Shown here one piece after another: positions 2,620 through 7,148 of a DNA stretch of 64,000 nt. Position 1 is the first letter of the stretch. Every line of letters begins with the position of its first letter. The position numbers and the translations under genes are program-made. Under the pieces are notes generated by a model that saw nothing but the letters and a program-made list of their open reading frames with translations, did no database searches and was not told where the DNA came from. Where the stretch lies: contig NZ_CP136920.1 in the NCBI RefSeq assembly GCF_033100135.1, positions 5,575,001 to 5,639,000 of the forward strand, in the 5' to 3' direction. Source of the stretch: Rubellicoccus peritrichatus (GTDB lineage: Bacteria; Verrucomicrobiota; Verrucomicrobiia; Opitutales; Cerasicoccaceae).

Positions 2620-2805
2620 GGAGCTGAACTGAATTAGAAAAAAGAGCCTGTCTCAATCAAGACAAAGCTCCTGGAATCGGAAAGCTCGCGAGCCTCGCGT
2701 AATCGCTCTATTTTGCAACCCTTCTTTCGAGCCTACGACATCTGCATGACAAATGCAGAAAAAATTCGCTCGTCATTCACAATCGAGATACCTAGAGGTG
2801 CCTGC

Positions 2806-3519
2806 ATGTCTATTAAGGTGAATTTGGAAGTTCCTGGTTGGTCAACTGAGATTGAACTCATGGTGTTGGCCCGCCTCGCACAGCTCGTCCCCGACGGAGG
2901 TACTATTGTCGAGCTCGGCACACTCGCCGGCAGAACAGCCTACGCCATGGCTGCGAGCAATCCAAAGGTCAAAGTTCACTGCGTAGATGTCTGGGAGAAT
3001 TTTCTTAAAAGCAGCATCCCGGAGCCTTCCCTCATGCACTTCTCCGGAGATATTGAAGCTTTCGATACGGAAAACATCTACGAATGCTTCCTCAAGCAGG
3101 TTGAAGGCCTGGACAATATCGTCCCGCATCGTGGAAAAACCACCGAAGTGCCGTGGGATTCCGACGAGAAAATCGATCTGCTTTACATCGATGCCGACCA
3201 TGATGAAGAACCCGTTTACCAGGACCTCCTGAAATGGTTTCCCCGCATGAAGCGCAACGGCATCATCCTCGGGCATGACTTCAATATGGGCTCAGTCAAG
3301 CGAGCCCTGGCACGCTTTTCCCATGAAACAGATAAAATGGGCGAATACATGCAGTTGATCAATATCCCCAGCTGTGTCATCTGGGCTTATGTCAGAGGAA
3401 CCGATCATGCTAAGTCCTGGGGCATGGACTTCACCTCACTCTTTCCCTATGGCTGCTGGCATTATCCACTGACCGAAGCGGGGTTTGGCAAAAAGAAGTC
3501 AGAGGCGACAGAGAGTTAG
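2806..3519 (+). CDS. Class I SAM-dependent methyltransferase
   Basis: A 237-residue methyltransferase of the Methyltransf_24 type. The SAM-binding motif I is VELGTLAGRTA, followed by the acidic strand end HCVDVWENF and the core strand LLYIDADHDEEP, which carries acidic residues typical of O-methyltransferases of this fold; the strand IILGHDF follows. An in-frame ATG exists 93 bases upstream, but the start at 2806 is preferred because GAGGTG sits 6 bases before it and the protein family begins there. It is divergent from the glycosyltransferase on its left, so the two may serve the same glycan, but the substrate is unknown. Confidence 0.82.
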   Translation: MSIKVNLEVPGWSTEIELMVLARLAQLVPDGGTIVELGTLAGRTAYAMAASNPKVKVHCVDVWENFLKSSIPEPSLMHFSGDIEAFDTENIYECFLKQVEGLDNIVPHRGKTTEVPWDSDEKIDLLYIDADHDEEPVYQDLLKWFPRMKRNGIILGHDFNMGSVKRALARFSHETDKMGEYMQLINIPSCVIWAYVRGTDHAKSWGMDFTSLFPYGCWHYPLTEAGFGKKKSEATES

Positions 3520-3555: not shown

Positions 3556-3649
3556 TTTAGCCACAAAAAGGCACAAGAATTCACGAAAATGGCTGAATAA
3601 AGCCAGTGTCTTTTCTTTTTGTGGTTTTTCGTGCATTTTTGTGGCTAAA
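3556..3649. repeat. REP-like imperfect palindrome
   Basis: A 94-base imperfect inverted repeat. The outer arms TTTAGCCACAAAAA and TTTTTGTGGCTAAA are perfect complements, and the inner arms are built of degenerate GCAC/ACAA words. Palindromes with a GCCACA...TGTGGC frame occur scattered between genes in many environmental bacteria. Only one copy lies in this window, so the repeat status is inferred from the type and not shown here. Confidence 0.5.
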
Positions 3650-3899
3650 AAGGTTTTTTGAGAAGAATTTGCCTCCAGTTTTCATTCCAAAAAGTGACTT
3701 TTTTTCAGCTTTTTTCGCGATTTTCATAAGCTCCGATTTATTGCCAAAGTTATTCACTTTTTTACACTTTGGAAATCACTCGTTACGAGCAAGTTACAGA
3801 GTTACTAACCATGCGTTCAAAACTTAATCAAGAAATTCACAAACTTTTGATAACCAGTAACTTTTGAACGTTTTTTCTTGATTCAAAAACCACCTGGAA

Positions 3900-5112
3900 C
3901 TAGCCTTCAATCAGTTCTTTGAAAGAACGGGTTGCTGGTCAGCCAAAACTCGTTCCAATTAGTAATCTCTTATTGAGATCTTTGCGAAGGAGGCTCCTTA
4001 GATTCGTCTCGGAGTCAGGATTTGCAGTTATTGAGCATACTTTGTGTATGCTCTTTGGATCCTTGAGGTGATTACGTTACGGTTGGAACCATGTGATGAC
4101 GAAACCAGCACAAACCTCAGGATAATCCCGGGAAACCGGGTAAAAGGTCGTAGCTGACTGGTAACTACGACCCCCTTGCGAAAGATTTCGATCTTTTGTC
4201 AGGGCAGCTTTCACCCGTCCCGACCAATGGCGTCGCAGCTAATTGGTTTATTGCGAATAGAGGGATGAGGCGGCAAGCCGGACAACATTGTCCGTCCGGC
4301 GAGTCGAGTTAGGAGCTCAGCGAGTCAATGCGCTGATGTTTCTCCGACGCGGTGACCCTGGCAGGGGTCAAAGGAAGCTACCGTGAACCAGCCCCCCACA
4401 TGTATCCGGCGACAAGCACAGTTGCCCTAAGATCTGCGAACCACGCGCAAGCAGATGCGAAAAGGATCCAGCGGATGGGAGTGAAGGAGATGCGGCCTCT
4501 TAATCGAGAAGCCTAGTGCCTTCAGCCAAAGAGCAAGCGGTGTCCAAAACACATCGATTGCCTGTGTCAAGTAATGCTTCCTGAGGGAATGTTTAGTGAA
4601 GTCTGGATCTGTCTCTCACGGCAGATTCGGTCCTCATCCATCAGTGCGTTGGAGTGACGTCCACTGCAACGTATTGAAGGCAGCGAATCATAGAACTGTC
4701 CTCAGGGACGGCGTGCACGTGTTCGTTGAAGCAATATCGAGGCAAGACCCGTAACCAATATGGAATGTGGCGATTCAGGTCGTTGCATGAAGTGTGGACA
4801 AGCGGCCAAGAAGTTGGACACAGCAATTTCTTGACCGGGTGCGGCGAGTAGTTCGTTGGTAGCGAGCAACCGAACCGTGCTGAAAGGCCTCACCCAAAAT
4901 CTCAGACCAGGTAACTGCGTCTGGCGGGCCTGCTATGAGCCCGTAGACTTCGCTTGTGACTGCGAAGACTAGCGTCGGGGAGTCGCCAGCCTTTCGGAAC
5001 CAACCATTCCGATTGAGCGCCAAATGACGACATAGGGAAAGAGCGTTTGGCGAACGCCCACCCCCAACATTTGAAAGCCCCACGGGATAGCCCCGTGGGG
5101 CTTTCAACGTTT
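3900..5112 (+). ncRNA. Candidate giant structured noncoding RNA (about 1.1-1.2 kb)
   Basis: This long stretch has no credible open reading frame on either strand, yet it is GC-rich and unlike the AT-rich spacer before it. It is dense in hairpins: GAGCATAC/GTATGCTC at 4033-4053; CCCGG-GAAA-CCGGG with a GNRA tetraloop at 4127-4140; GGTCGTAG/CTACGACC at 4146-4172; CTTCGC/GCGAAG near 4948-4967; GTTCG-TTG/CAA-C-CGAAC near 4850-4875; GCGTT/AACGC at 5043-5057. It ends in a strong hairpin at 5073-5105. The GAAA tetraloop favours the plus strand. I saw no motifs of 16S/23S rRNA, RNase P, tmRNA or group I/II introns. Size and ornate structure recall the GOLLD, ROOL and OLE classes, but I cannot assign it to one. 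The boundaries are estimates. Confidence 0.62.
5073..5105 (+). terminator. Strong hairpin at the 3' end of the structured RNA
   Basis: GAAAGCCCCACGGG pairs with CCCCGTGGGGCTTTC across a short loop. It is followed by AACGTTT and not by a pure T-run. Because the stem is nearly symmetric it could also stop transcription of the GT-C gene arriving on the minus strand. Confidence 0.6.
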
Positions 5113-5153: not shown

Positions 5154-7148
5154 TCAATAGAACAACATGACTAGCTGACGTGCTAATAGATTTGCATCAG
5201 AACCATTAGGCAGACCAGTAGGCACGCCACCGCCACCAGCCGACATTTGCGTCGCCACGCGTAATTGTGGCGACAATTGCGAATCGGGAATCGCGACGAT
5301 ACGCATTTTTAACTCATTCGGAAGCCCATCTGTCATGACGAGTGCAGTCATTGCCTCCTGTGAAAGGCTATTGTTTAGCCCGATCAGCGACAGCCATTGC
5401 GCCTGCGCGGCTGAAGTATCTCCATTCCAATGAAGATAAACTCCATAAATATAGGCAACGCGCGGAGAATACTTATCCAAAGCGGCGGCAACGGCGATTC
5501 GTTTTTCGAGTTGCTCACCCGATGGGCGATCCGGCAAAGCCGCGAGGTCCAAATTGTAGCGCGCAATAACTTCCAACTCCTGAGCAGCATGACGTAACGG
5601 ATTCACCTCCAGGGCCTCTTGAGACCACATCAATGCTTCCTCATCTTCACCAGCATCAAGTGCCGCATAGCCTAAAAGCAGATAATCCTGAATTTCTGTT
5701 ACTGGCTCACGAACCTGCCAGAAATTAGAAAAAGTCAGAACTGCTCCAGCCAGCATGAGGCAGAGGCCAGCTGCGATTTGATCAAATCCAAGCCTGCTCC
5801 ATGGCATAATGCCCCAGCCACCAGCGAAAACTGCAAGCAGTGGAACAAGTGGGATACGAAATCGGGCGCTGACGTAAGTCAGCACCACTCCCGCCGTGTA
5901 CGCCAGAGCAGCTCCAGCCAAAATGGTAAACGAAAGACGGTTTTTCCTGCCCCAAAGTAGCAACGGCAGCGCAGCCGTCATCAATAAGCCCCAACCAAGA
6001 AAATTCCACCGCAACCAGGGCGACAGCCCATGGTGAACCGCGAAGGTCTTGTTATTGTATTGCTCGTAATTGTTGAAAAGGTAGTAAGTTTTTGCGGCCA
6101 GACGCCGAAAAAAGCCAACTGGATCATCAGATACCATTTTAAAGAAACGCCCTCTCCAATAATCGTTCACAGACGCAACATCAGCAGGTGCATCATCTCC
6201 AATATCTTTTCGATACATCAATAAAGATTCAATACGTGCAGGATTCACATGCCGTTCGCTCTGATTGATTTCGATTTGCTGAGTGTAGTATTTGCCATGC
6301 GAATCCGGACGGTTTGCAGCCCAGAGATTGAATGGTCCCTGGGTCGGCAACACCTTAAAACTACCGGAAAGCTGAGCGTTGAATATTCCCATCGTCAAAG
6401 CAGGAATAGCCAACCCAATCCAAACCACAAAGACGGGCCAGCAGGGTGCCTTCCTCTCAGAAGTCGATGCAGCATCCACCTTTTGGCGCCTGCAATCCAG
6501 CCATACCAGTAAACACATCAAGCAAGGGACAACTAAAGCAATCGACCACATCTGCGGCCGCGTCAATCCGGCGAGAGCCAAAAGAAATCCACTCGCAAGC
6601 GCGTTTTGCGCATTTGCACTCTTCAAAAAAGCCAAGGCGCGATCCAGACCGGCCAGCATAAGCGCAACCGCCAGAGTGATATCCAACGGGTCCACCATGA
6701 AAAATAAACCGACTGGATAAAGGGCCCAAATCAAACATGCGACGATTCCGGCGCTGATGTCTCCCCATAGCTCAATTGCCAATCTCCATATCAACCAAAG
6801 TGATATGAGCCAGGACAACAAATTGACCAATCTGGCCCAATCTGGCAGCAGGATTTCCGGCAAGCCAAGCTTAACTGCAATCGACAATACCAGTGGATAA
6901 CCCGGAGCTCGGTAAAAGGGCTCAGCAGGAAGACGGTTCTCAGCAATATCCTTAGCTAAAAGCAGGTTCTCTTTGCTATCCAGGACGGGATACATACCCA
7001 TCGGTGTCGCCGCATACCAGAAGCTATGCCCGGCCGCATATCCCAGACCAAGCAGCAAGAGACACCAGAGCACAGTTTTTCCACGCTGTCCTAAGAAGCG
7101 GGCATTACTGTTTTCCTCAGAGCTATCCGATGAAGATGAATCCGACAC
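5154..7148 (-). CDS. GT-C membrane glycosyltransferase with TPR-like tail
   Basis: A 664-residue polytopic membrane protein of the GT-C fold (ArnT/PMT-like), which uses polyprenyl-phosphate sugars on the periplasmic side. After a short Ser/Glu-rich cytoplasmic tail the first membrane helix starts near residue 29. The first loop carries the Asp in VLDSKENLLLAKDIAEN and then FYRAPGYPLVL, the classical loop of this fold. About ten further hydrophobic helices run to residue ~480. The last 180 residues are soluble and contain TPR-like helices (GYAALDAGEDEEALMWSQEA). The gene lies just past the terminator of the FKBP gene, so it needs its own promoter in a gap of about 30 bases or some readthrough. 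Acceptor unknown. Confidence 0.82.
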   Translation of the reverse strand: MSDSSSSDSSEENSNARFLGQRGKTVLWCLLLLGLGYAAGHSFWYAATPMGMYPVLDSKENLLLAKDIAENRLPAEPFYRAPGYPLVLSIAVKLGLPEILLPDWARLVNLLSWLISLWLIWRLAIELWGDISAGIVACLIWALYPVGLFFMVDPLDITLAVALMLAGLDRALAFLKSANAQNALASGFLLALAGLTRPQMWSIALVVPCLMCLLVWLDCRRQKVDAASTSERKAPCWPVFVVWIGLAIPALTMGIFNAQLSGSFKVLPTQGPFNLWAANRPDSHGKYYTQQIEINQSERHVNPARIESLLMYRKDIGDDAPADVASVNDYWRGRFFKMVSDDPVGFFRRLAAKTYYLFNNYEQYNNKTFAVHHGLSPWLRWNFLGWGLLMTAALPLLLWGRKNRLSFTILAGAALAYTAGVVLTYVSARFRIPLVPLLAVFAGGWGIMPWSRLGFDQIAAGLCLMLAGAVLTFSNFWQVREPVTEIQDYLLLGYAALDAGEDEEALMWSQEALEVNPLRHAAQELEVIARYNLDLAALPDRPSGEQLEKRIAVAAALDKYSPRVAYIYGVYLHWNGDTSAAQAQWLSLIGLNNSLSQEAMTALVMTDGLPNELKMRIVAIPDSQLSPQLRVATQMSAGGGGVPTGLPNGSDANLLARQLVMLFY

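What the first reader, a model, noticed from the sequence alone, without database searches (positions are those of the whole stretch)
3900..5112. Giant, ornate structured RNA candidate with no coding capacity
A 1.6 kb gap holds a ~1.1 kb stretch without a credible ORF on either strand. It differs in composition from its flanks and is packed with perfect 5-8 bp hairpins, one with a GAAA tetraloop, and closed by a strong stem. Neither rRNA, RNase P, tmRNA nor group I/II intron hallmarks are visible. Known RNAs of this size and complexity (GOLLD, ROOL, OLE) are rare, and I cannot match it to any of them by eye. It may be a new class or a diverged member. It sits between a methyltransferase and a GT-C gene without mobile-element or phage context.
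Basis: partly seen in the sequence, partly recalled or inferred. Interest (0 to 1): 0.88.

Follow-up and report, generated by a model that had tools for sequence, protein, structure and literature searches.

The report
Diverged MISL giant noncoding RNA gene
The stretch is a real large structured RNA gene, but it belongs to an already catalogued class with no known function (MISL RNA); what looks new is that this class seems to begin with the same "boxA" signal that ribosomal RNA transcripts carry, which gives its unknown job a first testable handle.

Summary
In detail: window 3878-5107 (+) is a non-coding, strongly folded RNA gene. It is not a new class. cmscan matches Rfam MISL RNA (RF03079, 1-751/751) at 4120-5058, 274.4 bits, E 3.6e-82, only 0.2 bits under the gathering cut-off, so routine annotation misses it. 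Of 163 ungapped modelled pairs 146 are canonical, 57 of them changed on both sides from the consensus. Confirmed relatives are nearly all Verrucomicrobiota. My paper searches found no function.

New for the class: the Rfam model stops short of the 5' end. Before it lie (a) a closing P0 stem in 63 of 65 loci, 8% of shuffles, and (b) a boxA-like motif GTTC[TCA]TTGA in 62 of 67 loci. Its core occurs in 67 of 75 16S rRNA leaders and 1 of 30 RNase P upstreams. In front of the promoter, DnaA-box-like TTATNCAC sites are enriched (90 in 62 loci; shuffles 1.6). Most likely this is a Nus-factor-assisted, rRNA-like transcript; what the RNA then does is unknown.

The parts
3750..3757 (+). TTATTCAC, DnaA-box-like site in the AT-rich stretch upstream of the promoter (a weaker TTTTACAC follows at about 3760-3767)
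   Evidence: TTATNCAC is enriched upstream of MISL as a class, but this is the only such site within 260 nt here. DnaA binding is inferred, not shown
3878..3906 (+). sigma-70-type promoter candidate: -35 TTGATT (3878-3883), 17-nt spacer, -10 TAGCCT (3901-3906, weak)
   Evidence: the same spacing (17 nt, then 7 nt to the motif) read by eye in G001, G004, G008 and G061. Prediction only
3914..3928 (+). boxA-like element GTTCTTTGAAAGAAC at the predicted 5' end of the transcript
   Evidence: same core as 16S rRNA leaders
3929..4119 (+). 5' domain P0 (191 nt here, 290 nt in G002, 37-49 nt in most lineages), closed by a stem between the boxA-like element and the Rfam model start; not in the Rfam model
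4120..5058 (+). MISL RNA core, Rfam RF03079 positions 1-751
   Evidence: 274.4 bits, E 3.6e-82
4549..4706 (+). 158-nt stretch standing in place of 2 consensus positions (about 402-403) inside the MISL core
   Evidence: alignment
5071..5107 (+). terminator hairpin (16 bp, 5-nt loop) taken as the end of the transcript
   Evidence: hairpins at the same place in relatives by eye

Best explanation
This is a stand-alone gene for a diverged MISL RNA of about 1.19 kb, read rightwards from about 3914 to the terminator at about 5107. Shown by computation: the MISL fold, lack of coding capacity, an extra 5' domain in front of the Rfam model, a conserved boxA-like motif at the predicted 5' end, a terminator-like hairpin, and, for the class, enriched TTATNCAC sites upstream. 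Inferred: the boxA-like motif recruits NusB/S10 (NusE) to the polymerase as in rRNA operons, which protects a long untranslated transcript and helps it fold while it is made; the finished RNA then works as a stable structural or scaffold RNA, not as an mRNA or cis-regulator. Weaker inference: the DnaA-type sites couple its expression to DnaA. My odds: MISL membership 0.97; extra 5' domain 0.95; boxA acting through Nus factors 0.6; DnaA control 0.35. What the RNA does in the cell is unknown.
For: cmscan 4120-5058 against RF03079, full length, E 3.6e-82. 146 of 163 ungapped pairs canonical, 57 changed on both sides. Four relatives in its own family match RF03079 with 239-278 bits, one of them, G002, 72% identical over 993 nt. 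67 distinct full-length loci. P0 stem of at least 3 bp in 63 of 65 loci against 8.3% of 3250 shuffles; in 18 aligned loci 9 of 14 P0 pairs have double-sided changes that keep the pair. GTTC[TCA]TTGA in 62 of 67 loci, after a TTG...TA---T promoter pattern at a fixed distance. GYTCWTTGA in 67 of 75 distinct 16S leaders; strict motif in 1 of 30 RNase P upstreams. E. coli-based boxA consensus GYTCTTTAANA: PMC5725501 section 13. NusB is encoded in this genome. TTATNCAC: 90 sites in 62 upstreams, 55 of 62 loci with at least one, shuffles 1.6 on average; 1 site in 48 16S upstreams; 0 of 30 RNase P upstreams.
Against: 0.2 bits under Rfam's gathering score; 17 of 163 pairs non-canonical. 59 of 65 MISL motifs can pair as a 4-bp hairpin GUUC/GAAC while 0 of 67 rRNA boxA elements can, and the boxC-like GTG[CT]GA that follows boxA in 55 of 67 16S leaders is absent from all 65 MISL: the motif could be a MISL hairpin that only resembles boxA. 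The loose form of the motif (66 of 67) also turns up in 3 of 30 RNase P upstreams. In family f14, MISL has GTTCCTTGA where four f14 16S leaders have GCTCTTTGA, GTTCTTTGA or GATCTTTGA. This genome's own 16S leader was not found. Only one TTATNCAC stands near this promoter; no oriC was found to confirm the local DnaA box, and tandem TTATNCAC pairs across whole genomes are hardly above control (7 against 4). No expression data.
Confidence: 0.7

Rival explanations
1. The conserved 5' motif is a MISL-specific hairpin (4-bp stem, 7-nt loop), a structural or protein-binding part of the RNA; its likeness to rRNA boxA is coincidental.
For: 59 of 65 MISL motifs can form the stem, 0 of 67 rRNA boxA elements can; no boxC-like follow-up in MISL, 0 of 65.
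Against: The first nine letters match the local rRNA boxA core and sit at the predicted transcript start. Stem support is thin: nearly all pairs are invariant, 4 loci have GAGC (one G-U), 6 of 65 lack a full stem. In one search, 7 of 7 genomes with a GYTCATTGA 16S element have CATTGA or CAATGA in MISL, though these lineages are related and other genomes with CATTGA in MISL have CTTTGA in 16S.
Confidence: 0.35
2. A completely new class of giant RNA.
For: Below the gathering score; a 158-nt insertion and a 191-nt 5' domain are absent from the Rfam model.
Against: Full-length match at E 3.6e-82 with 57 double-sided pair changes, and relatives of rising score in the same family, order and phylum.
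Confidence: 0.02
3. The AT-rich stretch with DnaA-like boxes is an origin of replication and the RNA an origin-linked transcript.
For: AT-rich 3601-3900; clustered TTATNCAC upstream of many MISL loci.
Against: Sampled GC skew turns from negative to positive at about 1.04-1.08 Mb in this genome while MISL is at 5.58 Mb; in G043 it turns between about 3.97 and 4.18 Mb while MISL is at 2.45 Mb.
Confidence: 0.03
4. A pseudogene or an overlooked protein-coding gene.
For: Only short ORFs.
Against: No Pfam match in the six ORFs scanned; RNA-type paired changes.
Confidence: 0.01

Closest known systems
MISL RNA (Rfam RF03079)
   Same: Full-length structure and sequence match, non-coding
   Different: 0.2 bits under the gathering score; 158-nt insertion; the Rfam model omits the 5' boxA-like motif and P0 domain found across the class
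rRNA operon leaders with boxA
   Same: GYTC-TTTGA-type core in the leader of a long untranslated structured RNA
   Different: The MISL motif is self-complementary and lacks the boxC-like follow-up; MISL is not rRNA
GOLLD, ROOL and OLE giant RNAs
   Same: Size class and ornate fold; GOLLD and ROOL form RNA-only cages and OLE a dimer (PMC12286853, passages including the abstract)
   Different: None of these families is among the matches up to E 5; whether MISL multimerises is untested

Membership tests
MISL RNA RF03079 | Covariance-model match over the full model | tested here: met
   1-751/751, E 3.6e-82
MISL RNA RF03079 | Score at or above Rfam's gathering score 274.6 | tested here: not met
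   274.4 bits, 0.2 short. This is a curation cut-off, not a biological feature; the relative G004 passes with 277.5 bits
MISL RNA RF03079 | Consensus pairs kept through changes on both sides | tested here: met
   146 of 163 canonical, 57 changed on both sides, 17 non-canonical, 8 more with a gap
MISL RNA RF03079 | Non-coding, independent transcript | tested here: inconclusive
   Non-coding. Promoter and terminator are predicted only; no RNA data
rRNA-type boxA transcript | boxA core near the 5' end | tested here: met
   GTTC[TCA]TTGA in 62 of 67 MISL; window GTTCTTTGAAA at 3914; 1 of 30 RNase P upstreams
rRNA-type boxA transcript | boxC-like element after boxA, as in local 16S leaders | tested here: not met
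   0 of 65 MISL against 55 of 67 16S leaders
rRNA-type boxA transcript | NusB/S10 binding | not testable with these tools
   NusB gene present
DnaA-controlled promoter | DnaA boxes (TTATNCACA) upstream | tested here: inconclusive
   TTATNCACA 38 sites in 62 loci, shuffles 0.5; one TTATNCAC at the window's promoter; no oriC reference found
GOLLD, ROOL, OLE | Rfam match | tested here: not met
   none listed up to E 5

The most novel reading that the evidence does not exclude
MISL RNAs are giant non-ribosomal RNAs made like rRNA: a boxA at the 5' end loads Nus factors onto the polymerase to protect and fold the transcript, and DnaA-type boxes upstream tie its synthesis to the replication cycle in Verrucomicrobiota.
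Probability: 0.25. Interest if true: 0.75.

Novelty: new member of a known kind. Interest (0 to 1): 0.5.

Why it matters
The locus itself is one more member of a catalogued giant RNA class for which my searches found no function. The comparison adds what the Rfam model lacks: a further 5' domain, a boxA-like signal shared with rRNA leaders, and repeated DnaA-box-like sites in front of the promoter in many relatives. That gives an RNA of unknown function three direct experiments, and suggests how very long untranslated RNAs in bacteria may be protected and folded.

Tried and rejected
New RNA class: rejected by the RF03079 match. Origin of replication: rejected by GC skew. Phage or plasmid element: blastn of 4120-5112 found no match in the phage or plasmid records at E 1e-5; the single viral contigs pattern hit L135 is not MISL. 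Conserved gene partner: flanking proteins cluster within lineages only, the largest cluster in 18 of 85 loci; I recognised by eye, without a library scan, Rho-like, CysK-like and M23-peptidase-like neighbours.

Literature: 'MISL RNA' is in 2 papers, 1 listed, the Ribonanza preprint PMC10925082, which shows a MISL window as a mapping example (passages). MISL with ROOL and GOLLD: 0 papers. MISL with Rfam: 3 papers, 2 listed, the other listed one on Salmonella virulence and by its title unrelated. One search gave 113 papers, 20 listed, none about this RNA by title. PMC12286853 and PMC11109978 do not hold the word MISL in the main text (passages). The paper I recall as the source of MISL (Weinberg 2017, gkx699) is not held. 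BoxA with noncoding or giant RNA: no listed title or abstract start describes a boxA on a giant RNA (listings only). PMC5725501: abstract, sections 4 and 13. PMC5835720: passages.

Controls and dropped rows. My first RNase P control anchored on a short motif and gave 0 of 30 boxA; with exact gene coordinates it is 1 of 30 strict and 3 of 30 loose, TTATNCAC still 0 of 30, and the report uses. It covers 30 of the 51 matched RNase P loci. 16S leaders: 77 taken, 2 identical ones dropped, 75 counted; 8 lack the motif. P0 and hairpin tests used 65 of the 67 loci; L036 and L084 were dropped because the motif with its extension was not matched. 64 of these entered the promoter table and 62 the upstream box count, the rest too short upstream. 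Loci are related, so they are not independent cases. The genome contigs pattern was taken from this sequence, so absence from other phyla is not proven; a planned Planctomycetota search failed and was not replaced; tandem TTATNCAC pairs 7 places in 7 of 14 genomes (2 at MISL) against 4 for the reversed control; the flanking ORFs of the five others did not reveal an oriC (by eye).

Full report
What is there. The 1634-nt gap between ORFs 2713-3519 (+) and 5154-7148 (-) holds a non-coding RNA gene on the + strand. Its longest ORF is 110 aa and antisense; six of the seven ORFs of at least 50 aa were scanned and gave no Pfam match. The fold of 3895-4890 is 4.8 standard deviations below 20 shuffles. 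The gene ends with a perfect 16-bp hairpin at 5071-5107.

Identity. The whole window at Rfam gathering scores gives only two tRNAs. The region by E-value gives MISL RNA RF03079 over its full length at 4120-5058, 274.4 bits against a gathering score of 274.6, E 3.6e-82. In that alignment 171 pairs are shown: 8 have a gap, 146 are canonical (76 as in the consensus, 13 changed on one side, 57 on both) and 17 are not canonical. The copy is long (939 nt against 751 positions), mainly through a 158-nt stretch at 4549-4706. In its own family 5 of 10 genomes carry MISL, this one included, at 239 to 278 bits, one of them over the cut-off. In 288 genomes of the phylum 24 match and 22 pass the cut-off, with Infernal's stricter filters; 0 of 14 control genomes match. 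A pattern scan of genome contigs gave 88 stretches. 61 are MISL by a profile built from the genome loci: 59 titled with a verrucomicrobial name, plus L085 ('Paceibacterota') and L116 ('bacterium'). The other 27, titled with other phyla, are not. The flanking proteins of L085 cluster with those of verrucomicrobial loci. One viral contigs pattern hit is not MISL, and phage and plasmid records gave no blastn match.

The 5' end that Rfam lacks. Among 67 distinct full-length loci, GTTC[TCA]TTGA lies within 320 nt upstream of the model start in 62, and a looser form in 66; L084 lacks both. It sits 52-64 nt upstream in most loci, 206 nt in this window and 305 nt in G002. Directly after its 15-nt extended form begins a stem that closes at the model start: at least 3 bp in 63 of 65 loci and at least 4 bp in 58, against 8.3% and 5.5% of 3250 dinucleotide shuffles; L040 and L101 fall short. 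In 18 aligned loci, 9 of 14 P0 pairs have double-sided changes that keep the pair. So the RNA has a 5' domain of 39 to 305 nt that the model does not cover.

The motif as boxA. Of 75 distinct 16S leaders from verrucomicrobial genomes, 67 contain GYTCWTTGA (50 GTTCTTTGA, 10 GCTCTTTGA, 5 GCTCATTGA, 2 GTTCATTGA). NusB/E binds boxA in nascent rRNA upstream of 16S and 23S, and its main role at rRNA is now thought to be RNA folding (PMC5725501 introduction); the consensus there, for gammaproteobacteria, is GYTCTTTAANA (section 13). With exact gene coordinates 1 of 30 RNase P upstreams has the strict motif and 3 of 30 the loose one (an earlier, less exact count gave 0). In this genome GTTCTTTGANAG occurs 17 times against 3 for the reversed control, but 15 of these lie in an unrelated dispersed repeat, so it is not a general promoter motif. 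Before the motif a sigma-70-like pattern stands at fixed distance (T at -35 in 77%, A at -12 in 58%, T at -8 in 75% of 64 loci), which places the motif at the predicted start of the transcript. NusB is encoded in this genome. Against: 59 of 65 MISL motifs are self-complementary and 0 of 67 rRNA ones are; 55 of 67 rRNA leaders have GTG[CT]GA shortly after boxA and 0 of 65 MISL do. The motif is either a boxA adapted to this RNA or a hairpin that resembles one; I put 0.6 on Nus-factor function.

Sites in front of the promoter. In 62 upstream regions of 200-260 nt there are 90 TTATNCAC sites (55 loci with at least one, 25 with two or more) against 1.6 on average in shuffles; 38 read TTATNCACA against 0.5. 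Commonest strings: TTATTCACC 39, TTATTCACA 30. 16S upstreams hold 1 site in 48, RNase P upstreams 0 of 30. TTATNCACA is among the E. coli DnaA box forms in PMC5835720 (passages). In several loci the sites stand about 11 bp apart. But the window has only one such site within 260 nt, no oriC was found to prove the local DnaA box, and tandem pairs genome-wide are hardly above control (7 against 4). The locus is not the origin by sampled GC skew. DnaA control is a lead, at 0.35.

Verdict. The gain is a corrected gene (about 3878-5107), the reason annotation misses it, and testable features of a class for which I found no function in print in the searches named under Tried and rejected.

Noticed in passing
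L158-L171 and L173 (whole genome of the window): A dispersed repeat in at least 15 copies (13 on the - strand) with two conserved blocks, about 300 and 150-200 nt in L160, the second containing GTAAACGTTCTTTGACAGTCAAG; identity unknown.
   Followed up: partly
L085 (JASGCJ010000002.1): A contig filed as Candidatus Paceibacterota carries MISL and flanking proteins that cluster with verrucomicrobial subdivision 6 loci; probably a mislabelled or mixed MAG.
   Followed up: partly
window 3556-3649: A 34-nt inverted repeat (82% complementary, 26 nt between the arms) just after the methyltransferase gene; it gives only sub-threshold microRNA family matches.
   Followed up: no
L031 and L046 (genome G226): One genome carries two different MISL copies, 502 and 405 bits, each with the boxA-like motif.
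   Followed up: no
L064 and related loci (Verrucomicrobiota): In one lineage MISL is followed by genes that look by eye like cysK and then rho; conserved there, not elsewhere.
   Followed up: no
L324 and L325 (genomes G340 and G198): TTATTCACAAGTTATCCAC at the start of a gene that looks by eye like a PIN/PhoH-type protein, in two genomes of one genus, away from MISL.
   Followed up: no
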